Source: Streptomyces sp. ISL-10
Lineage (GTDB): Bacteria > Actinomycetota > Actinomycetes > Streptomycetales > Streptomycetaceae
Reading direction: 5' to 3'
DNA length: 64,000 bases
NCBI RefSeq assembly: GCF_018614575.1
Contig: NZ_JAGGOJ010000012.1
Location: forward strand, 1-64,000
Shown: in pieces, positions 3,758 to 37,660 of the stretch
Numbering within the stretch: the stretch's first letter is position 1
Layout of the letters: every line of letters starts with the position of its first letter
The notes under the pieces: generated by a model
Told to the model about the DNA's origin: nothing
The model's input: the letters and a program-made list of their open reading frames with translations, nothing else
Databases searched by the model: none
Position numbers and translations under genes: made by a program

Positions 3758-4134
3758 GGAGAAGCGACTTCCCCGGATACCGTCCTCCAAGCCGGACGGA
3801 GTGTCCGGCGGGCGCATGTGCGGGGTGGGCGCGAAGGGCAGCCACTCAGCACGCCACGGTCGAAACGGCTAGGAACCAGACGGGCTCCAGAGCGGCGCGA
3901 GTGCAGCAGCGAAGTGACCACAGCCGATCGACAACATCGCCAGAGGACCGACTGCTGAGATTCCAGACGTGATGTCGCGGTTTGCGCGGGGCCTGAACTG
4001 CGGCCCTTTCGAAACGTCCGGCGACACCACGCGGAGATCATCAGTGACCAGCCCAGCAGACCTCAGCCACCGCTCCGCCGATGGTGCATCCAGTGGCAGG
4101 CGAACCCAGTGGGAGGCGTTGGAGGAAACGAGCG
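3758..4134. other. No recognisable feature
   Basis: Open frames in this stretch on either strand are Arg/Ser-rich and look like out-of-frame readings of high-GC DNA. I see no RNA gene, terminator or repeat. Confidence 0.4.
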
Positions 4135-4248
4135 GTGAGCATGATGGACCTCATGACTGAGCAGTGGCGGATAGTTGTCGCGGCGGCCTTCATAGCGGCC
4201 GCCTGGGTGGGTGGGCTCAACGGCGGTCGCAAGCCGAAGAGCGCCTGA
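4135..4248 (+). CDS. Very small single-helix membrane protein
   Basis: This 37-residue peptide starts at GTG, which sits about ten bases after a strong GGAGGA. The peptide has one hydrophobic helix (WRIVVAAAFIAAAWVGGL) followed by a basic tail (NGGRKPKSA), so the C-terminus probably faces the cytoplasm. Internal ATG codons at 4141, 4144 and 4153 are alternatives. The good ribosome site and the clear helix make it more than a chance frame. Function unknown. Confidence 0.5.
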   Translation: MSMMDLMTEQWRIVVAAAFIAAAWVGGLNGGRKPKSA

Positions 4249-4298
4249 CAGAGCAGGCTGCGACACCCGTCCTTGGTCCCCGCATGCAGTCCACCGCC

Positions 4299-4586
4299 TC
4301 AGCTGGCCTTGCCCAGCCGAGCTATCACACGCACCAGTGCCGCCACGTCATGAGCCACCGCCGCCGACAGGACCAGGCGCACCGCGCCGGATCCGTCCGC
4401 ATTCGCCTTGGCCTGCCATTCGAGCCCAGTCGTGTCGAACCCGGCCGCCGCCAACGCATCCGCCAGCTCGGTACCGGCATCAGTCGCGTCCCGCCAGCCC
4501 GCCACGTAGTCCACGCCACGTACCCAAACCACCGCGTCAGGGTCGAACGATTCGTCCTCGAAACCCGCGTCCTCTGGGTGGTGCAT
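4299..4586 (-). CDS. Conserved small acidic streptomycete protein
   Basis: The product has 95 residues and starts MHHPEDAGFEDESFDPDAVVWV. The start is supported by AAAGGA ten bases upstream. It has an acidic N-terminus, a central VRGVDYVAGWRDATDAGTELADALAAAG segment and a final helix, with no membrane segment. I recall similar small proteins beside XRE/ATPase/DUF397-type regulatory clusters in streptomycetes. It lies at the downstream end of the minus-strand run that includes the ATP-binding protein and XRE regulator, and its start lies inside the preceding broken gene. The function is not known to me. Confidence 0.6.
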   Translation of the reverse strand: MHHPEDAGFEDESFDPDAVVWVRGVDYVAGWRDATDAGTELADALAAAGFDTTGLEWQAKANADGSGAVRLVLSAAVAHDVAALVRVIARLGKAS

Positions 4587-4871
4587 CTGTCTCAAGTCCT
4601 TTCCCCGTGCACTGGCTTGACTCTGACGATCGGGGATCATCGGGCGTGAGCACGACGAAGACCCCGGTACCATCGGCACCGGGTTGCATCTGCATCCCGA
4701 ACCGGGCCGCCCCACATGCTGTCCAGGCGAGAGGGGCGGTCCGGCCCGCAACCGGCTCACAAGGGCCGGAAGTTAAAGGGTGCGCAAGCAGGGATCGCTG
4801 ATCACCGCCAACGGCACGTACAACGCGGTCCAGAAGACGACGATCCCGAACGCGAATAGCCGCTGTTTCAT
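4537..4871 (-). pseudogene. Small secreted or membrane protein, apparently frameshifted
   Basis: Two pieces in different frames look like one protein. The first starts at ATG 4871, overlaps the previous gene by ATGA, and gives MKQRLFAFGIVVFWTALYVP plus a short tail before TAA at 4773. That is a membrane anchor or signal sequence. The second, in the next frame, reads HPLTSGPCEPVAGRTAPLAW and continues through MQMQPGADGTGVFVVLTPDDP. That piece is well protein-like but has no start codon of its own nearby. The shift falls around 4775-4785. This could be a mutation, a sequencing error, or a programmed shift; the anchor could also be a real 32-residue peptide alone. Confidence 0.45.
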
Positions 4872-5113
4872 GAGTCGGCACCGCCGCACTCAGCTCGCGT
4901 TGCTCGGAAGAACGTGGTCATCACGGCCCGAAAGCCCGTGTGCCCGGAACGGCCCGCATGCCGCAGGCACCACACCTCCGGCTTCTCTTTGCTGTCAGCG
5001 GCTCCTGATGACTCCTGGCACGTCGTGCACTCGGCCTCGAAGATTGGGCCGCTTCCAGAAGCGTCGGGCTGCAACACCCAGTCCACGAAGCGCAACACCG
5101 TCCTTGCCGCCAT
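4868..5113 (-). CDS. DUF7848 family protein
   Basis: The gene encodes an 81-residue protein of the streptomycete DUF7848 type. A VLRFVDWVLQ strand opens it, followed by two cysteine-bearing segments (ECTTCQESSGAADS and WCLRHAGRSGHTGFR) and the end VMTTFFRATRA. The Cys/His spacing (CTTC, then C-x2-H) suggests a small metal-binding fold, though this is inference. The ATG at 5113 overlaps the preceding stop by one base (TGATG) and follows AAAGGAAGG by eight bases. Its stop overlaps the next start by ATGA. Proteins of this kind usually sit beside HATPase and XRE regulators, as here. Confidence 0.75.
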   Translation of the reverse strand: MAARTVLRFVDWVLQPDASGSGPIFEAECTTCQESSGAADSKEKPEVWCLRHAGRSGHTGFRAVMTTFFRATRAECGGADS

Positions 5114-5328
5114 CACATACGCCTTCCTTTCGGCTTGATTCGCAGAGTTCGTCCATGGCGATCAACCGGCAGCACATCGGCCGCATTCACCCGCAGCGCA
5201 GGACTCGCGTTGAAGACCAGAACCACTTGGGAACCGCCCGAGGCGTACCGGTCGGATCGAACCGCTTTGACTTCCCGCCACTGTCCGTGCGCGCACACCC
5301 AGTCCCCCCGCCGCACTCGTAGCGCCAT
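5113..5328 (-). CDS. Small conserved basic protein
   Basis: The protein has 71 residues and begins MALRVRRGDWVCAHGQWREV, with the core VVLVFNASPALRVNAADVLPV. The alternating hydrophobic pattern suggests a small beta barrel. It is coupled on both sides: its ATG overlaps the stop of the ATP-binding gene by one base and its own stop overlaps the DUF7848 start by one base. An ATG four codons earlier is possible but would overlap the upstream gene more. No function is known to me; position implies it belongs to the ATPase/DUF7848 module. Confidence 0.65.
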   Translation of the reverse strand: MALRVRRGDWVCAHGQWREVKAVRSDRYASGGSQVVLVFNASPALRVNAADVLPVDRHGRTLRIKPKGRRM

Positions 5329-26716: not shown

Positions 26717-27226
26717 GTGTCGCAGGACGAGTCCCGGGCAGAGGCGGTGAAGACCGCCTGGCAGATCCACAGTTCGCTCCACGAGTCGACCCGCACGGTG
26801 GACGCCAAAGCGTCCTTCGCCCTTGCCATGGAGTCCGCCGCCCTCGCCGGAATCGCCGCTCTGTCGGGCAGCGGCCGCTCCCTCGACCGCGTGACCGGCC
26901 CCGCCGCGGCCGCTCTGTGGCTGGGAGTCGCGCTCATCGGGCTCTCCGCGGTTCTCGCCGTTCTCGTAGTCATACCCCGCCACAGGGGCGAAGGCCGCTC
27001 CCCCAGCCCCGGCGAGGACGAATTCCTCTTCTACGGCCATCTGCGCCACTGGTCCCCCGACGACCTCGCCCAGCAATTGGTACGCGTCGATCCGCTGCCC
27101 ACGCTCAGCCGCCAGCTCGTCGTCATGAGCGCCATCGCCTGGACGAAACACCGGCGCGTCCAGCAGTCGCTGCTGCTGGCCGTCGCCGGTAGCGCGATGG
27201 TCGCCGCCGCCGTGGTGTTCGCCTGA
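26717..27226 (+). CDS. DUF5706 (Pycsar-effector-like) membrane protein
   Basis: The protein (169 residues) matches the pattern of DUF5706, the domain of PycTM-type effectors that kill by disturbing the membrane when a cyclic pyrimidine nucleotide appears. A cytosolic helix with TRTVDAKASFALAMESAALAG leads into the first hydrophobic segment. A second follows (GPAAAALWLGVALIGLSAVLAVLVVI), then a soluble part with YGHLRHWSPDDLAQQL and SRQLVVMSAIAWTKHRRVQQ, and a last helix. It starts at GTG, seven bases after a run of six G. The Crp/Fnr gene starts eight bases after its stop. No cyclase is adjacent; the nearest is the cyclase-like gene 9 kb away on the other strand. Confidence 0.7.
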   Translation: MSQDESRAEAVKTAWQIHSSLHESTRTVDAKASFALAMESAALAGIAALSGSGRSLDRVTGPAAAALWLGVALIGLSAVLAVLVVIPRHRGEGRSPSPGEDEFLFYGHLRHWSPDDLAQQLVRVDPLPTLSRQLVVMSAIAWTKHRRVQQSLLLAVAGSAMVAAAVVFA

Positions 27227-27234
27227 AACCGCCC

Positions 27235-27936
27235 GTGGACACCTCTCCGCACCGCCACCGGCCCGGCAGGTCGACCTTCTGGTCCCTGCTCGACGACACT
27301 GCCCGGACGGAACTGCTCGGCATGGGCAGTCTGACCCACTTCCCGCCGAGGCACGTCATGATGCGGCAGTACGACCTCACCGACCATCTCCTGGTCATCC
27401 GGCGCGGCTGCGTCAAGGTGTCCGCGGCATCCGCCGCGGGCTACCAGGCCGTGCTCGCCATCCGCAACGCCGGAGACCTGCTGGGCGAGCAGGCGGCACT
27501 GGACGGCGGGCCCCGCTCGGCCACGCTCGTCTCACTGACCCGGATCGAGGCCCTCGTGATCCCCGCCGACCCGTTCCGTGCCGCCGCCCGGACCGCGCCC
27601 GCGATCGGGCTCGCCCTTCAGCAGGTGCTCTCCGCGCGCCTGCGCGAGGCCGACGGCCACCGCGCCGCCGCCGGTTCGGAGGCCGTCCAGGCACGGCTCG
27701 CCGCACTGCTGCTGGAGCTCGGGGCGGAGTACGGGCGCCCCGAGGGCAACGGCTCCGTCCTCATCGCCCTGCCACTGTCCCAGGACGACTTCGCCGGGCT
27801 CGTCCTCAGCTCGCGGCGGACGGTCAGCCGCGTCTTCGAGCAGTGGCGCGGGCGCGGTTGGGTGACGACGGGACGCAACAGGCTGACCATCGACCGCCCG
27901 GACGAGCTGAAGCGGCTGAGCAGCAGCGGGCGCTGA
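27235..27936 (+). CDS. Crp/Fnr-family regulator
   Basis: This 233-residue protein has a cyclic-nucleotide-binding beta-barrel (about 20-140), an interdomain helix (QQVLSARLREADGH) and a C-terminal HTH (LPLSQDDFAGLVLSSRRTVSRVFEQWRGRGWV). The phosphate-binding cassette region (GDLLGEQAALDGGPRSATLVS) keeps the Gly-Glu and Arg-Ser-Ala positions of nucleotide-binding members, so it could sense a cyclic nucleotide. It begins at GTG without an obvious ribosome site and is probably coupled to the DUF5706 gene eight bases upstream. Pairing with a Pycsar-like effector suggests nucleotide-dependent control, but this is inference. Confidence 0.88.
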   Translation: MDTSPHRHRPGRSTFWSLLDDTARTELLGMGSLTHFPPRHVMMRQYDLTDHLLVIRRGCVKVSAASAAGYQAVLAIRNAGDLLGEQAALDGGPRSATLVSLTRIEALVIPADPFRAAARTAPAIGLALQQVLSARLREADGHRAAAGSEAVQARLAALLLELGAEYGRPEGNGSVLIALPLSQDDFAGLVLSSRRTVSRVFEQWRGRGWVTTGRNRLTIDRPDELKRLSSSGR

Positions 27937-28107: not shown

Positions 28108-29769
28108 TCAGACCTCGTCCCAGGCCATCGTGGGCAGCCCGTACTCGTCGGCCAGCGGGTTCCAGTCGGACACGAAGTCCTTCTTCGCGCTCGTCGCCCG
28201 TGTGTTGGCGCGGTTCGCCTCGTCCCAGTACGCCGAGGACACCACCGCGCCGGACGTGCACCCGCTCATCACCTCCCCCGCCAGCTGCGCGTAGGCACGG
28301 TCGGCATCGGCGGACGCCTGCCAGCCGGATTCCAGGTTCTCCGTCATGGAGGAGGACAGCAGATCCACGTCGAGCGCTGCCAGCTCCTGTACGAGATCGT
28401 CCCGTTCGCTCGCCGCGTCCTCGAACACCCCCTGAACCTCCAGGAGTCCAGAGCTTCCCGGACACGCCATCATCCGGCGAACCGCCTCACCGACGCTCCC
28501 GCGATTGCCCTCGTTCCGCTCCAGGAGGCCGCTCAGGGCCCGCGCCTGGCCTTCCTCGGAGTTCTCGGCCGACGCACCGGACCCGCCCGATCCCAGGCCC
28601 GGCCGCCCGGAGCCGCTGGAGGCGGAGTTCTCGTTGAGCTCCTCGTACAGACCGGGGCCGTAGCGCAGGGCAAGGAGGAGCAGGATCACCGCGATGACCC
28701 AGCGGCCCGCGTGGGACTTGCCCTGCGACGCCGGAGCCGGTCGCCGCGGCCGCGGGGGCGTCCGCGGTGGCGTGGGCCGTGCACCGGACCGGGTCGCGGC
28801 CTTCGGCCTGGTCTGCGGGCGGTTGCCGGCCCGTGACGCAGCCGCGGACTGCGCACGGGACGAGGTGTTACGCGGCGCGGAGGCAGGCGGCGGGGCCTTC
28901 GGAAGGGTCGCGGGTGCCGTGCTGATCGCGCTGGTCAGGACGGTCAGCCACTCCTCCGGCTTGGGCCGCCGGGCGGGATCGGCCGACAGGCTCTGCTCCG
29001 CGAGCCGCCCCACGGCCGCGTCGGCGGCGCGCAGAACCCTGAAGTCCTTGCCGTCCTGCTCACCGGCGAAGAGCCGCGTGGCGAGCAGCCCGAACTTGTA
29101 GGCGTCACCCGACTCGGTGCCCTTGGGCTCTCCGTCGGGCAGGTTCCAGTTGGGGGTCTCGGCCTGCGGAAGCATCGACTTGCCTCGCAGGACCATCGCA
29201 TCGCAGTCGATGAGGAAGCATCTCGGGGCGCCCTCCAGGGAGAAGAACATGTTCTTCGGCGACAGGTCCCCGACCACGATCCCGAGGGAGTGCAGCCGCC
29301 CGAGCGTCCGCGCGAAGTCCAGGAGCAGTTCGAACCTCTGCCGGGGGGTGATACTGATGCCCGCCGTCTTCAGGTAGTCGCCGGGGTTCAGCAGATACTC
29401 GAACCCCGCCGCCTTCTTCTCGCCCGGGGCGAAGGCGAACTCCCGGAGGAACGGTCCCGGGATCTGGCGCATCAGAAACCCGCACACACCCGCCGAGTCC
29501 TTCACCAGCATGGCCGGCCAGGCCGTGCAGTTCGCCAGCCACTCACCGGTGCCGTGCTCGAGCGCCGGCATGAAGTCGACCATCTCCGCGAGCACATCGA
29601 CCCGCACCTGAGGGCGGATCTCCGGCTTGTACTCCTTGTACGCCACCGGCCACGACTTGTTGATCCTCCGGTCCTTGACCGCCCAGACGGTCCCCTGCCC
29701 ACCGGAGTCGAACTTGCGTTCCTTCACCACGCGGCCGATGTCCATGGCTGCCGGATACACGCCGCTCAT
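28108..29769 (-). CDS. Membrane-anchored protein-kinase-like protein (TerY-P triad kinase)
   Basis: The 553-residue protein starts with an unusual kinase domain: glycine loop GGQGTVW (23-29), Lys45 in VAYKEYKP, catalytic loop GDLSPKN with Asp168 and Asn173, and DCD (188-190) in place of DFG. The HRD histidine-arginine is replaced by Val-Gly. Residues needed for ATP and metal remain, so activity is plausible. A Pro/Arg-rich linker leads to one membrane helix (about 350-370, WVIAVILLLLALRYGPG), followed by a Ser/Gly-rich stretch and a helical extracytoplasmic domain with two cysteines. It overlaps the PP2C gene by ATGA. Kinase, PP2C and vWA TerY genes together define the TerY-P triad known from tellurite/stress systems. 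Confidence 0.85.
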   Translation of the reverse strand: MSGVYPAAMDIGRVVKERKFDSGGQGTVWAVKDRRINKSWPVAYKEYKPEIRPQVRVDVLAEMVDFMPALEHGTGEWLANCTAWPAMLVKDSAGVCGFLMRQIPGPFLREFAFAPGEKKAAGFEYLLNPGDYLKTAGISITPRQRFELLLDFARTLGRLHSLGIVVGDLSPKNMFFSLEGAPRCFLIDCDAMVLRGKSMLPQAETPNWNLPDGEPKGTESGDAYKFGLLATRLFAGEQDGKDFRVLRAADAAVGRLAEQSLSADPARRPKPEEWLTVLTSAISTAPATLPKAPPPASAPRNTSSRAQSAAASRAGNRPQTRPKAATRSGARPTPPRTPPRPRRPAPASQGKSHAGRWVIAVILLLLALRYGPGLYEELNENSASSGSGRPGLGSGGSGASAENSEEGQARALSGLLERNEGNRGSVGEAVRRMMACPGSSGLLEVQGVFEDAASERDDLVQELAALDVDLLSSSMTENLESGWQASADADRAYAQLAGEVMSGCTSGAVVSSAYWDEANRANTRATSAKKDFVSDWNPLADEYGLPTMAWDEV

Positions 29770-31088
29770 CGCACGGCCTCTCCCGTCCCCGGACCGGCGG
29801 GACCGCTGTGCGGACCACTGCCCAGGCCACTGCCCGTGCCGCCGCCCTGACCGCTCGCCCCGCCCAGGCGATGGCGCGGCCACACCGCCAGCAGCGTCCG
29901 GTCGTCGTCGAACGTCTCCCGGGAGAAGTCGAGCAGATGTGCGATCGCCAGTGGCTCGTGCGGCGGGCGGCCCAGTCCCCAGGCGATGTGCTCCCCGACC
30001 TTGCCCGTCCCGTCGCCCAGCGGATCGCCGAAGCCGTCCGTACCGATCAGGAGCACACCGTCCGCGGGGACCGTGCATCCGACCGGCTCGATCACCGGCG
30101 GCAGCGAGGGCAGCGCCTGGACCTTGGAGGAGAAGATCCCGTCCGCACCCTCCTCCTTGCCTCCCAGCAGCGGATGGAAGAAACCCCCGTGCAGGATCCA
30201 GGCGCCGCTGTCGCCGGCGTGTACGAGACGGGCCTTCAAACGGCCGTCGTCCGCGGCGTACACGATGCCCGCCACCAGTGTCGTGGCCAGCAGGCCCTGG
30301 GCCTCCTGCCGCTGTTCCCGGGTCGGCTCGGCACCGCGCGTCACCCGCATGACCAGCTGGTAGGCGGCGGCCGACACGGTGCGTCTCCAGTCGATCGCCT
30401 GGTCCCCGTCCAGTTGCCGCATGATGTCGGAGACGGCGGTACGGCACGCCAGCGCGGCCCCCACATGCGACTGCGGGGCCGCGGAGACGCCGTCCGCGAC
30501 GGCGAACACGACGCAGCCGGTCGGCTCGTGCACCGCCACGACGATGTCGTCCTGGCGCGGCTGCCCGCCGGAGCGATGGGAGTCGCCCCGTACGGAGGCC
30601 AGCCGGACCGTCATCCAGGGCGTGGACCAACCGTCGAACAGCGAGTCGGGGCGGTACGGATCGGCGGGCGGCGGCTTGGGCTCGAACCGGGTGGTCGGCC
30701 GACCCACCACCCAACGCGCCCACGGCGGCAGGTACCCCTGTGCGGACGGGGCTTCCCGCGGTGCCTGCACAGGCACAAGGTCGCCCCGGTCCGGTCGCTG
30801 TCGGGGCAGCGCGGACTGCTGGTGCTGCCGGGGCCCCGCGGACTGCTGGTGGTGGTGCTGGTAGGACGCCTGCCCCTGAGGGGAAGCGTGCGGCACATCC
30901 CCACTCGGCGACAGCTCCTGCCCCGGCCCGTACTCCGCGGGCGGGCCGGGCCGATGACGCTCCGGCGCGGGCGGGCCGGCCGACAGTGGCGGGGGCGGCT
31001 GCGGCGGTGGCGGCGCCGAGTCGGCACCGCCGGCGGAGTCGGAGGACTGCCCCTCGTCCTCCCGGCGGCGCCCGAAGAAACGTGACAC
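29766..31088 (-). CDS. PP2C-type Ser/Thr phosphatase (TerY-P triad)
   Basis: This 440-residue protein has a disordered Pro/Gln/His-rich N-terminus (about 1-130), then a metal-dependent PP2C domain. Motifs appear in order: RQDDIVVAV, VVFAVADGVSAA, LVHAGDSGAWIL, LIGTDGFGDPLGDG and FDDDRTLLAVWP, giving all the metal-binding aspartates. A Gly-rich tail closes it. GTG 31088 starts two bases after the TerY-like gene. It would reverse phosphorylation by the kinase encoded next to it. The long low-complexity N-terminus is unusual for this group. Confidence 0.9.
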   Translation of the reverse strand: MSRFFGRRREDEGQSSDSAGGADSAPPPPQPPPPLSAGPPAPERHRPGPPAEYGPGQELSPSGDVPHASPQGQASYQHHHQQSAGPRQHQQSALPRQRPDRGDLVPVQAPREAPSAQGYLPPWARWVVGRPTTRFEPKPPPADPYRPDSLFDGWSTPWMTVRLASVRGDSHRSGGQPRQDDIVVAVHEPTGCVVFAVADGVSAAPQSHVGAALACRTAVSDIMRQLDGDQAIDWRRTVSAAAYQLVMRVTRGAEPTREQRQEAQGLLATTLVAGIVYAADDGRLKARLVHAGDSGAWILHGGFFHPLLGGKEEGADGIFSSKVQALPSLPPVIEPVGCTVPADGVLLIGTDGFGDPLGDGTGKVGEHIAWGLGRPPHEPLAIAHLLDFSRETFDDDRTLLAVWPRHRLGGASGQGGGTGSGLGSGPHSGPAGPGTGEAVR

Positions 31089-31090
31089 GG

Positions 31091-31768
31091 TCACACCTCG
31101 TCGATCGCGAGACGGAAGCCTTCCGGCCGCTCGACCACCAGCTCCGCCTGGCCCGATGCCATCGCGTTGCCGGACTCCACGACGCTCTTGGTCAGCGCGG
31201 TGAAGAACCGGGCGATGGACTCGCCCAGTTGCGCACCGGGCACCGACACGAAGGCGAACTCCGCCTGCGTGGCGACGCTCAGCATCGTCTCGGCCTCCGC
31301 CGCGCCGATGCCGCAGGCGATGATGTTGGGCGCCGCCTTGGTCGCCGAGCGGTCGGTGAGCTCCCGGTGTCTGGCCTGCCACGCCTCACCGGAGTTGGGC
31401 TGACCGTCGCTGAGGAAGAACACCGCGGGCCGGTGCACGCGGTAGCCCTGGCTCTTGAGCGTGTCCACGTCCTGCGGAATGCGCCGCAGCAGCGCGGTGA
31501 ACGCCGCTTCGTAACTCGTCCCGCCGCTCGCCGTGAGGCGCGGCAGCTCGCTCTCGGCCCGAAGATCGGCGAGTATCAGCCGCTCGGTCACACTGTTGGA
31601 GAACCCGAGCACCGAGAAGCGGACCTTCGCGGCGGCCATCGGTTCACCGAGCAGGGCCCGGTGCAGCGAAGCCAGCCCCGCGTTGAGATCACCGACGTAG
31701 GGGTGCATGGAACCGGACTCGTCGGCCAGGACGTACACCGGCAGCAGCTGCCCTTGGGTTTCGGCCAT
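31091..31768 (-). CDS. TerY-like von Willebrand A domain protein
   Basis: The protein (225 residues) is a single vWA domain. Its MIDAS is complete: DESGS (16-20) in VYVLADESGSMHPYVGDLN, the Thr in TASGGTSYEAAF and the Asp in FFLSDGQPNSG, so it can bind a metal ion. It starts at ATG 31768, nine bases after AAGAG. TerY-type proteins occur with PP2C and a kinase in chemical-stress and phage-linked gene sets, and this one lies directly upstream of both. Confidence 0.9.
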   Translation of the reverse strand: MAETQGQLLPVYVLADESGSMHPYVGDLNAGLASLHRALLGEPMAAAKVRFSVLGFSNSVTERLILADLRAESELPRLTASGGTSYEAAFTALLRRIPQDVDTLKSQGYRVHRPAVFFLSDGQPNSGEAWQARHRELTDRSATKAAPNIIACGIGAAEAETMLSVATQAEFAFVSVPGAQLGESIARFFTALTKSVVESGNAMASGQAELVVERPEGFRLAIDEV

Positions 31769-31783
31769 GTCCATCAACTCTTT

Positions 31784-33583
31784 CTAATCGACGTCTTCGA
31801 GTGTGATCAGTCCCTGCGGGCGTTCCAGCCGCAGCTCCGACGAGCCGGCGACTGCGCTCCGCCCCAGGTGGAGCACGGTGTTCTGGAGCAGCATCGAGAA
31901 CTGAGCGGTGGCCTGTGCCAGGTCCGCGTGCGGCTGCGCCGCGACGGCGAACTCCGCCGGGCTCGCGATCCGCGCCACCGTCCGCCGGTCGACGGCGCCG
32001 ATGCCGCACGCCACGATGTTCGGCCGGTACTGGTGCTGCATCAGCCGCAGGTGCGCGGCCTGCCACTGGCCCCCGTCCGTCGGGTCACCCGCCGCGAGGA
32101 AGAAGACGGTGGGGCGGTTCACGCGCGTCGCCTGCTGCTTGAGCCGTTCCGTCTCCAGCGGTACGAGCTCCAGCAGGCGCTGGAAGACCGGTTCGTACCG
32201 GCAGCCGTGCCCGGTCGGCAGATCGGGGATGCCGGTCTGCCAGGACACCTGGGTGAGCGGCATCCGGACGTCGGCCGTGTCCGAGAAGGTCAGCACGGAC
32301 AGCCGTACGGCCGAGGTGACGTCCGGACTGTTGGCCAGCACGGTCTGCAACGACCGGAGGGTGTCGTGGAGTTGGCTGACGCAGCGTGCCGCGGCAGCCG
32401 ATGTGTCCAGGACGACGTAGACCGGCGCGATGCCGACCGCCGCCGGGCGTGCGTCCTGCGGTGAGGCGTCGTGCCGCGAGGCGGGCTGCGCGGCGTCGGG
32501 CCGCTGTGCAGACGCCGCCGCGTCGGGCCGGGTACCGCCCCACGGCGGCGTCGGCGGCGGGGGCGTCGGGGCCGAGGACGTCGGCGTGGACGCGGGCGGT
32601 GCCGGCTGCGCGACCGGGGGCAGCGCCTGCGCGGCGGCCGGCGCCCCGGCGCCCGACGGCAGCATCCCGCCCATGAGACCGGCCGAAGGCCCCAGCACCC
32701 CCTCGCGCAGTCCTGGCAGATCCACCTCCCGCACGATGCCCTTGTCGATCATGTAGCGGACCATCTCGACCTGTCGCTGCTCCTGGTCCAGGGCCTGCGC
32801 CCGCCGGCCCTCCTCCCAGCGCATCAGGAGATCCATCGCCCGCTCCGTGTCGTTCGGGTGCTTCGCCAGGTGCTCGAGGACGAGGCTGCGGAAGTCGAGC
32901 CGTACCGCGCCGAGAGCGGCGCGCTCCCGCTTGTCCCGCTCGATGCGGGCCTCCTGCCTGATGTCCTCGATCACTTCCTGGTGGCGAGTGTCACCGACCG
33001 CCGCCCTGTGCTGCAGGCGCCCGATCTCCGAGTCACGACCCGCCTTGGTCCGGCTGCGGATGAATTCCCTTGCCGCATCGTCCGGTTCGAGCTGCACATC
33101 GCAGTAGTAGAGCGTGACGCCTTCGGGCAGCGGGACCGGCAGCGCCAGCACTCCGTTGACCCGGGCCTGCGCCTCGAATGCCTCCTCGATCGCGAACTGA
33201 GCGGCATGCGGACGGATCTTGCTGATGAGATACGGGTAGACGACGCGGAGCACATCGGGAAGGTTGCTGCGCACGACCGCGACCGGATCGTGCACGCGGA
33301 ATCCGACGTCGATCGTCGCCTCGAAGCGGTGCGCCTGGTCCTTGCAGGTCAGCGGGGTCTTGGTGAGTTTGGCGGTGCGCCGGTGGTCGCCCAGGTCGAC
33401 GACGTAGCAGAGCTTGTGCTTGCCGAGCCACCGCTGGGTCATCGTGCGGTGCTTCGGCGTCTCGACCTCCCAGCCGCCGCCGTCCAGGGGGTAGACGACC
33501 GCGAAGTTCGGCGGCAGGTTCGGCAGCGTGCCGAGCTGGGCACGCGGCACCGGACGGTTGTTGAGGATCAGCGAGACTGTCAT
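31784..33583 (-). CDS. SPFH/band-7-like protein fused to a degenerate vWA domain
   Basis: The 599-residue product seems to combine an SPFH/band-7-like N-terminal domain (about 20-190; TPLTCKDQAHRFEATIDVGFRV and a later DVQLEP). It continues with a charged coiled coil (190-290), a Pro/Ala linker (about 310-390) and a C-terminal vWA domain. The vWA has lost its metal site: DTSAA replaces D-x-S-x-S, and LAAGDPTD replaces the usual Asp. SPFH proteins form membrane-associated oligomeric cages, so it could scaffold the neighbouring signalling proteins. It starts one base after the NTPase stop. The C-terminal vWA closely mirrors the TerY-like protein downstream, suggesting duplication and divergence. 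Confidence 0.8.
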   Translation of the reverse strand: MTVSLILNNRPVPRAQLGTLPNLPPNFAVVYPLDGGGWEVETPKHRTMTQRWLGKHKLCYVVDLGDHRRTAKLTKTPLTCKDQAHRFEATIDVGFRVHDPVAVVRSNLPDVLRVVYPYLISKIRPHAAQFAIEEAFEAQARVNGVLALPVPLPEGVTLYYCDVQLEPDDAAREFIRSRTKAGRDSEIGRLQHRAAVGDTRHQEVIEDIRQEARIERDKRERAALGAVRLDFRSLVLEHLAKHPNDTERAMDLLMRWEEGRRAQALDQEQRQVEMVRYMIDKGIVREVDLPGLREGVLGPSAGLMGGMLPSGAGAPAAAQALPPVAQPAPPASTPTSSAPTPPPPTPPWGGTRPDAAASAQRPDAAQPASRHDASPQDARPAAVGIAPVYVVLDTSAAAARCVSQLHDTLRSLQTVLANSPDVTSAVRLSVLTFSDTADVRMPLTQVSWQTGIPDLPTGHGCRYEPVFQRLLELVPLETERLKQQATRVNRPTVFFLAAGDPTDGGQWQAAHLRLMQHQYRPNIVACGIGAVDRRTVARIASPAEFAVAAQPHADLAQATAQFSMLLQNTVLHLGRSAVAGSSELRLERPQGLITLEDVD

Positions 33584-33584
33584 G

Positions 33585-35876
33585 TCACACCCCTTCCAGA
33601 TCGAGCTGTGCATGGACGACCGCCGCGGTCAGGGGAATCGGCGCCAGTTCCTCCGGGTCGACCCAGTCGGCCGCGCACCGCCGCAGGATCCGGCCGGTCC
33701 TCGGGTCCCCGTACGCGACCGCCCCCACCATCAGCCGGAACATCTCCCGCAGTGCCGGATCGCGCTCGGCGAGTGCCGCCCAGTTCCGCAGCACCTGTTG
33801 GGCCTCGTCGCCGAAGTGGGCCTGGTTGAGCGACTCGCGCCACAGGGCGATGAACGGTGCGCGCAACTCCTCGCGGTGGTGCGCGTGATGAAGCAGGGCG
33901 GGCCACTGCTCCTCCTCGCCGCCGACTCCGTGCTCGTCCTGGCCCACCACCACCTGTGCCGCGACGATCAGGAAGGAGAGCAACGCCGTCGGCCGCATGC
34001 GGTGGTCCGCGGACCTCTCGTGGAGGGTGCAGAGCACCAGTCCCGCCGAGTCGGCGTTCTGGGCGAGGAGATCGGCCAGACTGCGGCCGACGGCCACAGC
34101 CACGGTCGCCCGGTCGACGACGGCGAGGCGGGCCAGCGCCGCCACGGCCCGCTCGGGGTCCTCGCCCATGCCGTGCATGCGCGCTGCCGTGGCCTGTGCG
34201 AAGGGCCGGCTGCGGTCGGCGAACCATCCTTCGACCAGCGCGTCCGCCCGCTCCCGGATCCAGGGGTCGCGCGAGGCGACGTGAAGGGCGTAGGCGACGG
34301 CGTCGCGCCGCCGCGGGTCCTCGCTCTGCGCCCACGGGTGGAAGATGCGGTCGCACAGGTAGGTGAAGGATTCCGCCGCGATCACCCCGAGCGCGGCAGC
34401 CGCGTACACTCGGACCTCTTCGGCCGGGTGCACGACCAGAGCGGACAGCCAGTCGAGCAACTCGCTCTGGATCTCGTACTGGGTCCACGCGTGCCGGATG
34501 ACCCGCCGCGGATAGGAAGGGTCCTTGTACTCGAGCGCCCGGCCCGGCTCGCCGTCCTCCTTGTCGGTGTCCCGGGCGCGCAGCCGTGTCAGCTGCGTAC
34601 GGCGAGGGGCTGCGAAGGGGTCCCTGATCCGGGGCAGCCGGCCGTCCGGCCCGGCCATCAGCACATGCGGGCGGTCGTCCTCGAGGCGCTCGCGCAGGGC
34701 GCGGGCACAAGTGGCCGTGTACTCCTGCGGCAGGCCGTTGAGCACGGCGAGAGCGATCGCGAGACTCCGCACGGCGGGTTCCTGCAAGCTCTCGACCCAG
34801 ATGTCGAAGTCCTCGTCCGCCCGGCGGGCACGGCGCTCCTTGATGCGCTCGGGATCCAGCCGGCCGGACTCCCACTCCTCACTGATCGCCTCCGCCAGGT
34901 CGGCCGCCTGCTTGCAGGCGGGGTCGCCGTCGAGCAGCTCGTCCAGCAGCTTGTCGATGTCCTCGTGGCCGAGGAGCCGGTCGCGGACCGCGTCGCCGTG
35001 TCGCCAGCGCAGGTGGGAGGAGACGATGCCGCGCTGATCGGGTGCCTCGGTGACGTCGACGACCGCGGTGAGCAGTTCGCTGTCCGCGACCTCGGTGCTG
35101 GAGGCGGTGATCACCAGCCATGCGCCCGCGAGGGCGAGTGCGCCCTGCACCTTCTCGTACACCTCGCCGCGCAGCCCGGCGATTGAGGACGGCTGGTCCA
35201 GCAGGAAGGCGGCGCCGCGCTCGACGGAGTCGCCGTCGCGCTCCAGTAAGTCGGCGAGGGAGGCGAAGTCGACATCGCTGTCCAGGTGGTACTTGGTGGT
35301 GGCTCCCATGCCCTGGAGCAGGCGGACGGCCATGGCGGTCTTCCCGTACCCGGGGGCGCCGCGCAGGATCAGCAGATGCCGGCCGGCGAGGGCCTCCCTG
35401 GCGCCGGACAGGCCGGGGGGCTCCTGGTAGGCGAAGCGCACGCGCTCGTCCATGAGCGGGGAGATGATCCGCAGGCGCCGCTGGGCTCCGCCCAGGAGCA
35501 GGACGTACTTGTCGCCGCCGACGACGTCGCCCTCGACGTTGGCGAAGGCGTTGCGGACCCGGTCGTGGCGCAGGGAGCCCTGCCCCATCTGGCCGGTGGC
35601 CTCGAAGGACTCGGCTCCGGGCCCGGAGCGCGGCGGCTCCCCCTGCGTGCCGCTGCCGTCCCCTCCTCCCGGGGTGCCGGGGTTGCCTCCCGGGCTGCCG
35701 TCGCCCGCTGCGCCGTCGGAGGGCGGGGCCTGTCCTGCTCCGGGGGTCTGTGCCGGGCCGGGCGGGGCTGCGGCGTTACCCGCGGCCCCGGCCGGCCCGC
35801 CCCCCGTACCGGCCGCCGGAGGTACCGCGGGTGCGGCACCTCCGGCGGCCGGCGCTCCTGATGCCGGTGTCGTCAT
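33585..35876 (-). CDS. P-loop NTPase (STAND-like) with HEAT-like C-terminus
   Basis: This 763-residue protein has a disordered Pro/Gly/Ala N-terminus (1-100) and a short motif NVEGDVVGGDKYVLLLGG (113-130). An NTPase domain follows with Walker A GAPGYGKT (173-180), a possible Walker B FLLDQP and a sensor-like VITASS. The remaining 400 residues are alpha-helical repeats (VVHPAEEVRVYAAAALGVIA and others). This order is that of STAND-type signalling ATPases in which a N-terminal adaptor motif connects to a partner. The motif resembles the end of the cyclase-like protein encoded just upstream. Start and stop overlap or abut both neighbours. Confidence 0.8.
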   Translation of the reverse strand: MTTPASGAPAAGGAAPAVPPAAGTGGGPAGAAGNAAAPPGPAQTPGAGQAPPSDGAAGDGSPGGNPGTPGGGDGSGTQGEPPRSGPGAESFEATGQMGQGSLRHDRVRNAFANVEGDVVGGDKYVLLLGGAQRRLRIISPLMDERVRFAYQEPPGLSGAREALAGRHLLILRGAPGYGKTAMAVRLLQGMGATTKYHLDSDVDFASLADLLERDGDSVERGAAFLLDQPSSIAGLRGEVYEKVQGALALAGAWLVITASSTEVADSELLTAVVDVTEAPDQRGIVSSHLRWRHGDAVRDRLLGHEDIDKLLDELLDGDPACKQAADLAEAISEEWESGRLDPERIKERRARRADEDFDIWVESLQEPAVRSLAIALAVLNGLPQEYTATCARALRERLEDDRPHVLMAGPDGRLPRIRDPFAAPRRTQLTRLRARDTDKEDGEPGRALEYKDPSYPRRVIRHAWTQYEIQSELLDWLSALVVHPAEEVRVYAAAALGVIAAESFTYLCDRIFHPWAQSEDPRRRDAVAYALHVASRDPWIRERADALVEGWFADRSRPFAQATAARMHGMGEDPERAVAALARLAVVDRATVAVAVGRSLADLLAQNADSAGLVLCTLHERSADHRMRPTALLSFLIVAAQVVVGQDEHGVGGEEEQWPALLHHAHHREELRAPFIALWRESLNQAHFGDEAQQVLRNWAALAERDPALREMFRLMVGAVAYGDPRTGRILRRCAADWVDPEELAPIPLTAAVVHAQLDLEGV

Positions 35877-36649
35877 GGCCGGCCCGATCCGTCGGTGTTG
35901 ACGTTGACGGTCTTGTTGCCCTGGACCAGGTCGCCCTGGACGGTTCCGACGCTGATTCCGCCTGCGCTCGGCGGGCTGGGACTGTCTGTGCCGCCGCCGT
36001 GCCCGCCGCCGGGCATCGGGGCCCTGACCGGCCCGTTCGTCGGCTCGGCCGGGGGGAGACCGGGCGGGGCCGGGTGTCCGGGCACGGTCACCCAGCTCTC
36101 GATGACCTCGCCGTGCTTGGTCGTGAAGGGCATGGGCAGGTACGCGGCCGGATCGATCGAGCGGTGCCCGTGCCGCACGACGGCCCGGTGGATCTCCTCC
36201 GAGACGACGAAGACCATCCGAGCCGAGACGGCGGCGGCGAGGACGTCCCGCAGCGGCGCCGCGTCGACCAGCCGGCAGGCGGTGTTGACGGCATCCCCGG
36301 ACCAGCCCCGGCCGTCCCGCGCGGCGAGCCCCTGGTGCAGGGCGACTCGGAAGCGCATCGCGTGGGCCGGGCTGTACACGACGGCCTTCTGCCGCAGCTC
36401 GTCGTCAAGGGCACGTATGAAGGGTCCGGCCAGATCGATCGGTGAGACGGTCGCCGGAACGATCATCAGGACGCCGTCGCCGCGGTCCTCGGTGCTGATG
36501 CGCTCGGCCGGTAACCCGGCCCGCGCAAGCGCTTCGCCGAGCACCTCGTACATCCCAGCGCGCAGGGAGCGCTGGATCGGATCGGGCCGTGAGCTGAAGT
36601 TCTCGATGTCCAGCACCACGACCCAGCAGTGCGTGGCCTCACCAGGCAT
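35873..36649 (-). CDS. Class III nucleotidyl cyclase-like protein
   Basis: The 258-residue protein has a class III adenylyl/guanylyl cyclase fold. Both metal aspartates are present (Asp14 in VVLDIENFS and Asp58 in EDRGDGVLMIVP). The transition-state Asn and Arg also remain (GDAVNTACRL, Asn122 and Arg126), so it may be active; substrate choice cannot be read. There is no membrane or GAF domain. After a Pro/Gly linker the C-terminus carries ISVGTVQGDLVQGNKTVNVN, similar to a motif in the next gene product. It is the first gene of the six-gene operon, with ATG 36649 chosen and 36667 possible. The stop overlaps the NTPase start (ATGA). Confidence 0.75.
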   Translation of the reverse strand: MPGEATHCWVVVLDIENFSSRPDPIQRSLRAGMYEVLGEALARAGLPAERISTEDRGDGVLMIVPATVSPIDLAGPFIRALDDELRQKAVVYSPAHAMRFRVALHQGLAARDGRGWSGDAVNTACRLVDAAPLRDVLAAAVSARMVFVVSEEIHRAVVRHGHRSIDPAAYLPMPFTTKHGEVIESWVTVPGHPAPPGLPPAEPTNGPVRAPMPGGGHGGGTDSPSPPSAGGISVGTVQGDLVQGNKTVNVNTDGSGRP

Positions 36650-36862
36650 GGCGGCATCCCCAAACACTTCCGGAAGCGACTACTCGATCACTCGCCCCAG
36701 TAGTACGGCACCAAAGTCCCTTGGGTCTACGCCAATTGACACACAGCGGTGAATGGCCGATTTGCTTCGAAGATGCCATCGGAACGCGGCTTCGGCGCAA
36801 GCCTGCCGAGCCTCTCGTGCCCCTGCTGCCCCGGCACGGCTGTGCCCTCGGAGGGGCTCTCC

Positions 36863-37660
36863 TCAGAGTTCGTAGACGGCGCTCACCGGCGCGTGGTCGC
36901 TCCAGCGCTCGCCGTGCGTGGCCGCGCGTTCCACCCACGCCTTCACGGCCCGCCGCGCCAGCCCTGGCGTCGCCACCTGGAGGTCGATGCGCCAGCCGGT
37001 GTCGTTGTCGAAGGCGCGCCCGCGGTACGACCACCACGAGTAGGGGCCTTCCTGCTCGGGATGCAGGGCGCGCACCACGTCCACGTAGCCGGCCTCCTCG
37101 TACACGCGGGTGAGCCAGTCGCGCTCCTCGGGGAGGAAGCCGGAGTTCTTCCGGTTGCCCTTCCAGTTCCTGAGGTCGGCCTCCTGGTGGGCAATGTTCC
37201 AGTCACCGCAGACCACGGCTTCGCGGCCGTCCGCGGCTGCCCGCTCCCTCAGCTCCTTCAGATACGGCAGGAACTCGGCCATGAACCGCATCTTCTCGTC
37301 CTGCCGCTCCGTGCCCACCTCGCCCGACGGCAGATACAGGCTCGCGACGGTGACGCCGGGCAGGTCGGCCTCCACGTACCGTCCGCTGCCGTCGAACTCG
37401 CTCGACCCGAAGCCGATCCGCACCCGGTCCGGTTCCCGCCGCGTGTACAGCGCGACACCCGCGCGGCCCTTCGCGGCGGCCGGGACGTGCACTGTGAACC
37501 AGCCCTCCGGGCTGCGCACACCGGCCGGCAGCTGGTCGGCCTCGGCGCGCACTTCCTGGAGGCAGACCACGTCGGCGGAGGAGCCCGCGAGCCAGGGGCC
37601 GAAGCCCTTCTTGGCGGCGGCGCGCAGTCCATTCACATTTACGGAGGTAACGGTGAGCAT
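36863..37660 (-). CDS. xthA: Exodeoxyribonuclease III
   Basis: This 265-residue protein is the 3'-5' exonuclease/AP endonuclease of base-excision repair. It has the family motifs SVNVNGLRAA, VVCLQEVRAE (metal Glu), YLPSGE, VVCGDWNIAH (Asp/Asn), WRIDLQVA and the final GERWSDHAPVSAVYEL (catalytic Asp-His). Length is normal. It stands alone, 213 bases downstream of the cyclase-like gene start and pointing the same way. Confidence 0.95.
   Translation of the reverse strand: MLTVTSVNVNGLRAAAKKGFGPWLAGSSADVVCLQEVRAEADQLPAGVRSPEGWFTVHVPAAAKGRAGVALYTRREPDRVRIGFGSSEFDGSGRYVEADLPGVTVASLYLPSGEVGTERQDEKMRFMAEFLPYLKELRERAAADGREAVVCGDWNIAHQEADLRNWKGNRKNSGFLPEERDWLTRVYEEAGYVDVVRALHPEQEGPYSWWSYRGRAFDNDTGWRIDLQVATPGLARRAVKAWVERAATHGERWSDHAPVSAVYEL

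What the first reader, a model, noticed from the sequence alone, without database searches (positions are those of the whole stretch)
33585..36649. Shared G-D-x-x-x-G-[DN]-K motif between cyclase tail and NTPase linker
The cyclase-like protein ends with VGTVQGDLVQGNKTVNVN and the NTPase has NVEGDVVGGDKYVLLLGG before its P-loop. Matching short motifs on an NTPase and a separately encoded partner recall the RHIM-like amyloid signalling motifs that link bacterial NLR-type ATPases to effectors. Such a pair would suggest templated assembly between sensor and cyclase.
Basis: inference. Interest (0 to 1): 0.65.

Follow-up and report, generated by a model that had tools for sequence, protein, structure and literature searches.

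The report
Barcode-matched cyclase and sensor ATPase pair
In Streptomyces and related bacteria, an enzyme that probably makes a cyclic-nucleotide alarm signal carries a short tail tag that matches a tag on the sensor ATPase encoded next to it, and the two tags tend to change together from system to system, which suggests that the sensor switches the enzyme on by templated, amyloid-like assembly.

Summary
The cyclase tail (GDLVQGNK) and the NTPase linker (GDVVGGDK) share a motif found in 1 of 452 other genes of 61 loci. Family-wide, 76 of 106 cyclase/neighbour pairs share a tail/N-terminal segment at 4 or fewer of 400 shuffles, against 8 of 94 and 8 of 103 for other neighbouring genes. Within a genome a tail fits its own partner best in 28 of 34 cases, 15 expected. 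The cyclase domain has a class III nucleotidyl cyclase fold. Convergent with the operon lie a cyclic-nucleotide-binding CRP-type regulator and a Pycsar membrane effector, PycTM, also in 16 of 23 relatives. Best reading: a Pycsar-like alarm in which a STAND/NLR-like NTPase clusters and activates the cyclase through paired, BASS-like motifs. Amyloid formation, the nucleotide made and anti-phage function are inferred. The motif is not a RHIM.

The parts
35873..36649 (-). Cyclase-like effector (258 aa from ATG; GTG alternative at 36667): class III nucleotidyl cyclase domain about residues 1-193 (36071-36649), disordered linker, C-terminal motif
   Evidence: AlphaFold model with 195 of 258 residues at pLDDT 90 or more; best PDB matches are class III cyclases; no significant Pfam hit and no NCBIfam or PADLOC hit
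35897..35956 (-). C-terminal signalling motif ISVGTVQGDLVQGNKTVNVN; core GDLVQGNK at 35912-35935
   Evidence: sequence; alignment to partner
33585..35876 (-). STAND/NLR-like NTPase (763 aa): Pro/Gly-rich linker, motif, Walker A, helical/HEAT-like C-terminal part
   Evidence: Pfam Mg_chelatase 20.5 bits (cut-off 20.3) over residues 162-250, weak nSTAND3, NACHT and HEAT hits below cut-offs; Foldseek SAMD9, NOD2, AVAST5, Avs4 with low TM-scores
35487..35540 (-). NTPase linker motif NVEGDVVGGDKYVLLLGG; core GDVVGGDK at 35508-35531
   Evidence: sequence; D117 and K123 invariant in 23 aligned NTPases
35337..35360 (-). Walker A P-loop GAPGYGKT
   Evidence: sequence; alignment A4
31784..33583 (-). P3: 599-aa protein with conserved N-terminal domain and C-terminal vWA-like domain
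   Evidence: VWA E 0.0014, below Pfam cut-off; P3 at +2 in 29 of 29 loci of this clade, window included
31091..31777 (-). vWA protein (TerY-like by recall)
   Evidence: VWA_2 E 7e-5, below Pfam cut-off; at +3 in 29 of 29 clade loci (the clade was picked by presence of a vWA gene)
29766..31094 (-). PP2C-type protein phosphatase
   Evidence: PP2C_2 E 1.2e-19; at +4 in 28 of 29 clade loci
28108..29769 (-). Protein-kinase-like protein with a C-terminal hydrophobic segment
   Evidence: weak kinase-type hits, none above a curated cut-off; at +5 in 24 of 29 clade loci
27235..27936 (+). CRP-type regulator with cyclic-nucleotide-binding domain, convergent with the cyclase operon
   Evidence: cNMP_binding E 5.1e-16, HTH_Crp_2 E 4.7e-16; its binding domain also hits PADLOC PycTIR and PycC models; CRP convergent at +6 in 20 of 29 clade loci, 4 more off the locus
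26717..27226 (+). PycTM, Pycsar membrane effector, directly before the CRP-type gene on the same strand
   Evidence: PF18967 E 4.3e-21; PADLOC PycTM E 5.6e-33; same PycTM-CRP pair at the same convergent place in 16 of 23 relatives searched

Best explanation
The window holds an alarm system of Pycsar type whose cyclase is gated by an NLR-like NTPase. Proposed sequence: (1) the NTPase senses a trigger and oligomerises; (2) its clustered N-terminal motifs (GDVVGGDK type) adopt a cross-beta fold and template the same fold in the matching tail motif of the cyclase; (3) the clustered cyclase domains form the head-to-tail dimers that class III cyclases need, and make a cyclic mononucleotide; (4) this is read by PycTM, which damages the membrane, and by the CRP-type regulator. 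The vWA, PP2C and kinase genes probably set the threshold. Shown here: the motif pair, its co-conservation and tendency to co-vary, the predicted cyclase fold with conserved catalytic residues, the gene neighbourhood. Inferred: steps 1-4 as events, and that the assembly is amyloid rather than another kind of strand-to-strand docking.
For: Motif pair: shared segment in 76 of 106 cyclase/partner pairs at 4 or fewer of 400 shuffles, against 8 of 94 third genes and 8 of 103 upstream genes; at 0 of 400: 67, 2 and 1. Window clade: strict motif on both partners in 19 of 33, cyclase only 1, NTPase only 6, neither 7. Of the 7 with neither, L098 and L100 have GRDK on both sides, L105 GHDK/GRDK, L119 GRD on both, L120 YISQINN/YVSQLNN and L123 QEVTQGDKNIKN/QEAVMGDKNVNT; L106 does not match. 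Insulation: own partner best in 28 of 34 within-genome comparisons, 15 expected. Position: motif within 40 residues of the cyclase C-terminus in 71 of 76, median 8. Composition: N, G, K, F, I, H, V, Y and Q enriched, P, A, E, R, L, W and C depleted against the folded parts. Enzyme: D14, D58 and R126 in 59 of 59 aligned sequences; class III cyclase structures are the best matches, Z up to 17.3. Effector side: PycTM in the window and in 16 of 23 clade relatives beside the convergent CRP-type gene; in the other 89 loci a CRP-type gene at -1 in 60 and PycTM at +1 to +4 in 37. PMC11224242 (passages) says cyclases can become active by dimerising and leaves open whether oligomerisation activates PycC.
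Against: 30 of 106 pairs show no shared segment at that threshold, and about 8% of control comparisons pass it too, so part of the signal is linker composition. In an earlier run on 50 pairs the own partner beat every unrelated one in only 24. In 7 of 33 clade pairs only one partner has the strict motif. In subclade B (9 pairs) residues of own pairs agree no better than permuted ones (12427 of 20000). 8 of 48 unrelated linkers fit the window tail as well as its own partner. No motif segment matched a Pfam family, and K enrichment is not typical of amyloid motifs (recalled). In the second alignment (29 sequences) D14, D58 and R126 are at 90% or more, not invariant; N122 is N in 26 and D in 22 of 59. 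The cyclase matches no PADLOC PycC model, so Pycsar kinship rests on neighbours and fold; 6 of 23 clade relatives gave no PycTM match and one only a weak, distant one. The motif stretch is not modelled with confidence.
Confidence: 0.58

Rival explanations
1. The shared segments are a conventional short docking interface (beta-strand addition or a small beta-arch heterodimer) that tethers NTPase and cyclase in a stable complex. There is no amyloid and no templating; the NTPase regulates the bound cyclase allosterically.
For: Pairing and insulation need only specific binding. The motifs are short (median 21 residues) and in the GDK clade polar and charged (K and D conserved).
Against: Two partners that bind usually carry complementary, not near-identical, sequences. 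Here several pairs are almost identical (L127, L055, L073), which suits like-with-like stacking. Repeats such as GDKYEHNEYGDKYEHNEYG (L119) and GGDKTGHRKGGDQR (L114) also suit stacking.
Confidence: 0.25
2. Both motifs bind the same third component of the system (for example P3 or the vWA proteins), so the similarity reflects a shared receptor, not mutual contact.
For: vWA domains bind extended peptides (passage of PMC7159879); P3 and vWA genes follow in 29 of 29 loci of the window clade. The NTPase's best Pfam hit is Mg_chelatase, a clade of ATPases that works with vWA partners (same passage).
Against: Shared motifs also occur in loci where no P3 or vWA gene was detected with the seeds used, such as L129 and L140.
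Confidence: 0.1
3. The motifs are remnants of an ancestral fusion or of exchange between genes and have no function now.
For: Low-complexity linkers copy and recombine easily (general knowledge; no call).
Against: The motif is kept while the surrounding linkers vary in length and sequence, and several variants appear on both sides of a pair.
Confidence: 0.04

Closest known systems
BASS bacterial amyloid signalling sequences (Dyrka et al. 2020, not held; seen through passages of PMC7889193 and PMC8086366)
   Same: Short motif at the C-terminus of an effector and at the N-terminus of an NLR encoded next door; matching within a pair, diverse between pairs; filamentous bacteria.
   Different: The effector is a class III cyclase fold, not a BELL domain (CHAT and TIR are the other effectors named in the passages seen). 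The GDxxxG[DN]K motif could not be assigned to a BASS family here. No fibril data.
Pycsar (PycC cyclase plus PycTM or PycTIR; PMC11224242, passages)
   Same: Class III type cyclase linked to PycTM (PF18967); a cyclic-nucleotide-binding protein nearby; a relative with TIR domains beside it (L032).
   Different: The cyclase is not recognised by PADLOC PycC models. It is coupled to a STAND-like NTPase by matched motifs and has vWA, PP2C, kinase and CRP-type genes beside it.
EAD-type effector/STAND coupling and ternary conflict systems (PMC7159879, PMC8195603, passages)
   Same: An effector, sometimes a cNMP cyclase, and an NTPase share the same adaptor in multicellular bacteria; vWA and ATPase partners occur.
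   Different: Those adaptors are globular EAD or bDLD domains (from the passages and recall). Here a roughly 20-residue motif in a disordered linker does the job.
Avs/AVAST STAND NTPases
   Same: Weak structural match of the NTPase (AVAST5 filament and Avs4 among Foldseek hits, low TM-scores).
   Different: In Avs the effector is fused to the NTPase (recalled); here it is a separate protein joined by a motif.
GDQN fungal amyloid signalling motif (PMC12261475, results part 1 of 2 read)
   Same: A Gly/Asn/Gln/Asp-rich motif shared by an NLR N-terminus and the C-terminus of the neighbouring effector, found by the same adjacency logic.
   Different: Fungal, other pattern (NxxxGxQYxxxGxGDQNxVSxxxxQxN), effector with SesA domain.

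Membership tests
BASS / amyloid signalling motif pair | Motif at effector C-terminus and NLR N-terminal region, adjacent genes | tested here: met
BASS / amyloid signalling motif pair | Motif matches within the pair and diversifies between pairs | tested here: met
   76 of 106 against 8 of 94 and 8 of 103; 28 of 34 within genomes; but no residue-level pair effect in subclade B
BASS / amyloid signalling motif pair | Belongs to one of the ten BASS families | not tested
   BASS profiles were not available; ten typed segments gave no Pfam hit
BASS / amyloid signalling motif pair | Forms fibrils and cross-seeds | not testable with these tools
   needs peptides
BASS / amyloid signalling motif pair | BELL effector domain (the usual partner) | tested here: not met
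   effector is a class III cyclase fold
RHIM | [IV]Q[IVL]G core (recalled) | tested here: not met
   window motifs lack it
Pycsar | Class III cyclase fold with both metal aspartates | tested here: met
   fold; D14 and D58 in 59 of 59, 90% or more of 29 in the second alignment
Pycsar | PycTM or PycTIR effector beside the cyclase | tested here: met
   PycTM at 26717-27226, second gene past the end of the operon, convergent; 16 of 23 relatives
Pycsar | Cyclase recognised by PycC models | tested here: not met
   no PADLOC hit for P0001 or for three relatives
Pycsar | Makes cCMP or cUMP; stops phage | not testable with these tools
   needs biochemistry; the purine-specifying Lys position (placed by hand) holds E, A, Q and others, with no Lys among the 58 of 59 sequences listed
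STAND/NLR NTPase | P-loop NTPase followed by helical repeats | tested here: met
   GAPGYGKT; helical C-terminal part in the model, weak HEAT hits
STAND/NLR NTPase | Recognised STAND/NACHT profile | tested here: inconclusive
   nSTAND3 19.9 bits against a cut-off of 27.2, NACHT 14.4 against 26.7; Mg_chelatase 20.5 against 20.3 is the only hit above a cut-off; Foldseek SAMD9 and NOD2 with low TM-scores
TerY phosphorylation triad (recalled) | vWA, PP2C and kinase encoded together | tested here: met
   vWA 29, PP2C 28, kinase 24 of 29 clade loci; family-specific sequence features not tested

The most novel reading that the evidence does not exclude
A large, diversified class of cyclic-nucleotide alarm systems in actinobacteria in which Pycsar-like cyclases are switched on by NLR-like NTPases through pair-specific amyloid 'barcodes'. 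Each system in a genome has its own motif so that several run in parallel without cross-talk. This would supply a missing trigger for Pycsar-type cyclases (induced oligomerisation) and extend amyloid signalling from pore-type executioners to second-messenger enzymes.
Probability: 0.45. Interest if true: 0.9.

Novelty: new variant of a known kind. Interest (0 to 1): 0.78.

Why it matters
PMC11224242 leaves open whether oligomerisation activates PycC cyclases (passage). A sensor that templates the cyclase tail would be such a switch and would join two separate subjects, amyloid signalling and cyclic-nucleotide immunity. The dozens of natural matched and mismatched motif pairs collected here make specificity directly testable with short peptides and motif swaps. 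No paper on such a pairing showed in the listings of the searches made, judged by titles and starts of abstracts; some listings were cut (12 of 2,249, 15 of 2,014). The library lacks most subscription papers, including the original BASS and Pycsar papers.

Tried and rejected
Plain BLOSUM62 local alignment was dominated by Pro/Gly/Ala linkers: only 7 of 50 pairs beat all others, 27 of 50 were at 1 or fewer of 200 shuffles, and the window pair was not significant. It was replaced by a composition-adjusted matrix. (50 pairs): 36 at 3 or fewer of 300 shuffles, 24 better with the own partner than with every unrelated one. One search added third and upstream genes as controls. The matrix was chosen.

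Rejected: the motif as a RHIM (core absent); as a known Pfam motif (no hit); as a chance pattern. L079, L108, L111, L116, L121, L149 and L153 gave no cyclase call and are not in the counts of 118. Of the 118, 12 were left out of the 106 because the next gene was on the other strand, absent or 700 bases or more away, or the cyclase was 480 aa or longer. Of the places listed I did not fetch larger stretches for G001:C251, G028:C403, G101:C605 and the second copy in G051. Some loci are near-duplicates (L033/L119, L098/L100), so counts are not independent events. In one search I used 30 of the 33 pairs, leaving out L100 (duplicate), L117 and L120 (motif out of frame). In one search, 59 of 61 loci were aligned (L079 no hit, L080 too long). 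Gene calls in the fetched loci come from a simple codon-usage caller of my own, so starts are approximate; gene types come from one to four seed proteins each, so absences are not proven. The composition figures come from segments picked by a scoring scheme that favours rare residues, so enrichments are partly built in.

The rows shown for the cyclase fold searches name no PycC structure; this excludes nothing. P3 was not folded. BASS, ArchCandy and PASTA predictors were not available. PMC12419801 (passages) was opened for its amyloid mentions and was not relevant.
Full report
Observation. The two motifs are present at the stated places. Read on the minus strand, the cyclase-like gene ends in ISVGTVQGDLVQGNKTVNVN plus seven residues, and the NTPase, whose first ATG overlaps the cyclase stop codon, has NVEGDVVGGDKYVLLLGG some 40 residues before the P-loop. 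The strict pattern GDxxxG[DN]K is in 1 of 452 other genes of 61 loci.

Enzyme. The cyclase gives no significant Pfam hit and no NCBIfam or PADLOC hit, but its model is confident (mean pLDDT 87, 195 of 258 residues at 90 or more) and matches class III nucleotidyl cyclases (Foldseek E 1.4e-8; VIA Z up to 17.3, 156 aligned, 2.2 A). In 59 aligned sequences, window included, D14, D58 and R126 are invariant. In a second alignment of 29, mostly the window clade, they and N122 are at 90% or more. In the first set N122 is N in 26 and D in 22, and the purine-specifying Lys position, placed by hand, holds E, A, Q and others. So an active cyclase is likely, with a product that cannot be told from sequence. 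The tail after about residue 200 is of low confidence and without regular structure in the model.

NTPase. It has a P-loop. The only Pfam hit above its cut-off is Mg_chelatase (20.5 bits against 20.3, residues 162-250); nSTAND3, NACHT and HEAT matches are below theirs. Its model (mean pLDDT 74.5) finds SAMD9, NOD2, AVAST5 and Avs4 among the Foldseek hits, with low TM-scores and among many other AAA-type ATPases. I call it STAND/NLR-like, not a proven STAND. The N-terminal linker and the motif region are of low confidence.

Homologues. Cyclase relatives occur in 67 of 121 genomes of the genus. I fetched 60 places and 30 more, and 34 loci found with an NTPase alignment, from Streptomyces, Kitasatospora, Actinacidiphila, Actinoplanes, Pseudosporangium, Catenuloplanes, Kutzneria, Pseudonocardia and Actinocrinis. 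In 30 of these 34 a cyclase gene lies directly before the NTPase; in 3 the contig ends first, and in L121 the gene before it is another. In 33 pairs (these 30 plus the window, L031 and L034) the strict motif is in 20 tails and 25 NTPases, both in 19, cyclase only 1, NTPase only 6, neither 7; Fisher p 0.0026, ignoring kinship. Of the 7 with neither, 6 carry matching variants: GRDK/GRDK in L098 and L100, GHDK/GRDK in L105, GRD/GRD in L119, YISQINN/YVSQLNN in L120, QEVTQGDKNIKN/QEAVMGDKNVNT in L123; L106 has two non-matching variants. Own pairs agree at 7.07 of 12 residues against 6.39 permuted (2 of 20000, 30 pairs); in subclade A 7.61 against 7.13 (42 of 20000, 18 pairs); in subclade B there is no effect (12427 of 20000, 9 pairs). 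Kinship is not removed in these figures.

Family-wide. More distant cyclases carry quite different tail motifs, and the next gene often carries the corresponding one: GSLVGGDQHGVSGGQVTGDVILGG on both sides in L127, GVFGGxNHGIGGGTFSGDIHLG in L055, QIYDGNTF in L046, VDARGAVFGFG/VDASGAAFGFG in L074. With a composition-adjusted matrix, 76 of 106 pairs reach 4 or fewer of 400 shuffles, against 8 of 94 third genes and 8 of 103 upstream genes. Within genomes holding several pairs, the own partner is the best in 28 of 34, 15 expected. In loci with a small 152-aa partner (L066, L084, L089) the match is to that protein's C-terminal part. The shared segments are rich in N, G, K, F, I, H, V, Y and Q and poor in P, A, E, R, L, W and C. 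Apart from K this is what I would expect of amyloid signalling motifs (recalled); the scoring scheme favours rare residues, so part of it is built in.

Neighbourhood. In the window clade (29 loci with a vWA gene, window included) the order is cyclase, NTPase, P3, vWA, PP2C, kinase (29, 29, 28 and 24 of 29 for P3, vWA, PP2C and kinase), with a convergent CRP-type gene at +6 in 20 of 29 (4 more off the locus). In the window this CRP-type gene (27235-27936) has cNMP-binding and Crp helix-turn-helix domains, and beside it lies PycTM (26717-27226; PF18967 E 4.3e-21; PADLOC PycTM E 5.6e-33). Of 23 relatives searched, 17 gave a PycTM match; in 16 of them the stretch overlaps the cyclase locus and shows the same convergent CRP-PycTM gene pair; the 17th (genome of L115) is a distant match at 30% identity; 6 gave none. 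In the other 89 cyclase loci a CRP-type gene is directly upstream on the same strand in 60 and PycTM is within four genes downstream in 37. Two such PycTM-like proteins scanned match PycTM models in Pfam and PADLOC.

Mechanism. The parts fit a relay: NTPase oligomerisation, motif templating, cyclase clustering into active dimers, cyclic nucleotide, PycTM and CRP-type readout. Passages of PMC11224242 state that PycTM disrupts the membrane, that isolated cyclases may become active on dimerising, and that whether this activates PycC is open. Passages of PMC7889193 describe BASS motifs on BELL effectors and less often on CHAT or TIR. Passages of PMC7159879 and PMC8195603 describe cNMP cyclases linked to conflict systems in multicellular bacteria, with EAD-type adaptors. 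The results of PMC12261475 (first part) report a fungal motif pair, GDQN, found by the same logic. The passages I saw describe no cyclase joined to an NLR-like NTPase by a short motif, and no listing of my searches showed one (titles and starts of abstracts only, some lists cut); the original BASS and Pycsar papers are not held.

Verdict. Pairing and a tendency to co-vary are shown by computation; amyloid templating is the most economical reading but unproven; the RHIM label does not fit; kinship to Pycsar is by neighbours and fold, not by PycC models.

Noticed in passing
L066:5506-5964, L084:5441-5899, L089:6801-7259: Small 152-aa proteins next to a cyclase relative carry the matching motif in their C-terminal part (NTARDSGTVFAVQ); they look like BELL-type executioners (recalled; no Pfam or PADLOC hit for the L066 one), so cyclase and pore-former may share one barcode.
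   Followed up: partly
L041, L044, L047-L050, L054, L056 (GTGRTS); L045, L063, L068 and others (FTGRRT): gene after the cyclase: In many relatives the Walker A of the NTPase has Arg in place of Lys, suggesting loss or change of ATP hydrolysis.
   Followed up: no
L129 (cyclase tail and 674-aa partner): The cyclase tail has VVQVGGN and the partner VTQVAGD, resembling the RHIM/BASS3 core (core recalled).
   Followed up: no
L032:5510-6793 and 3854-5299: A close cyclase relative has a C-terminal extension that aligns with the next gene, which encodes TIR and GUN4-like domains, reminiscent of PycTIR.
   Followed up: partly
L125 and L138: Cyclase relatives with long His/Asp/Pro-rich tails lie after 650-654-aa P-loop proteins (dynamin-like by guess) and before 162-163-aa, probably membrane, proteins; no shared motif was found.
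   Followed up: no
L109 and L124 downstream end; L167, L170: A further ORF of about 519 aa, whose first part scored as cyclase-like where the locus held it, sits between the kinase gene and the CRP-PycTM pair.
   Followed up: no
window 36863-37660: A gene that looks like an ExoIII-type exonuclease (by eye, no domain search) flanks the cyclase and is also beside it in L031, which suggests a fixed chromosomal site.
   Followed up: no
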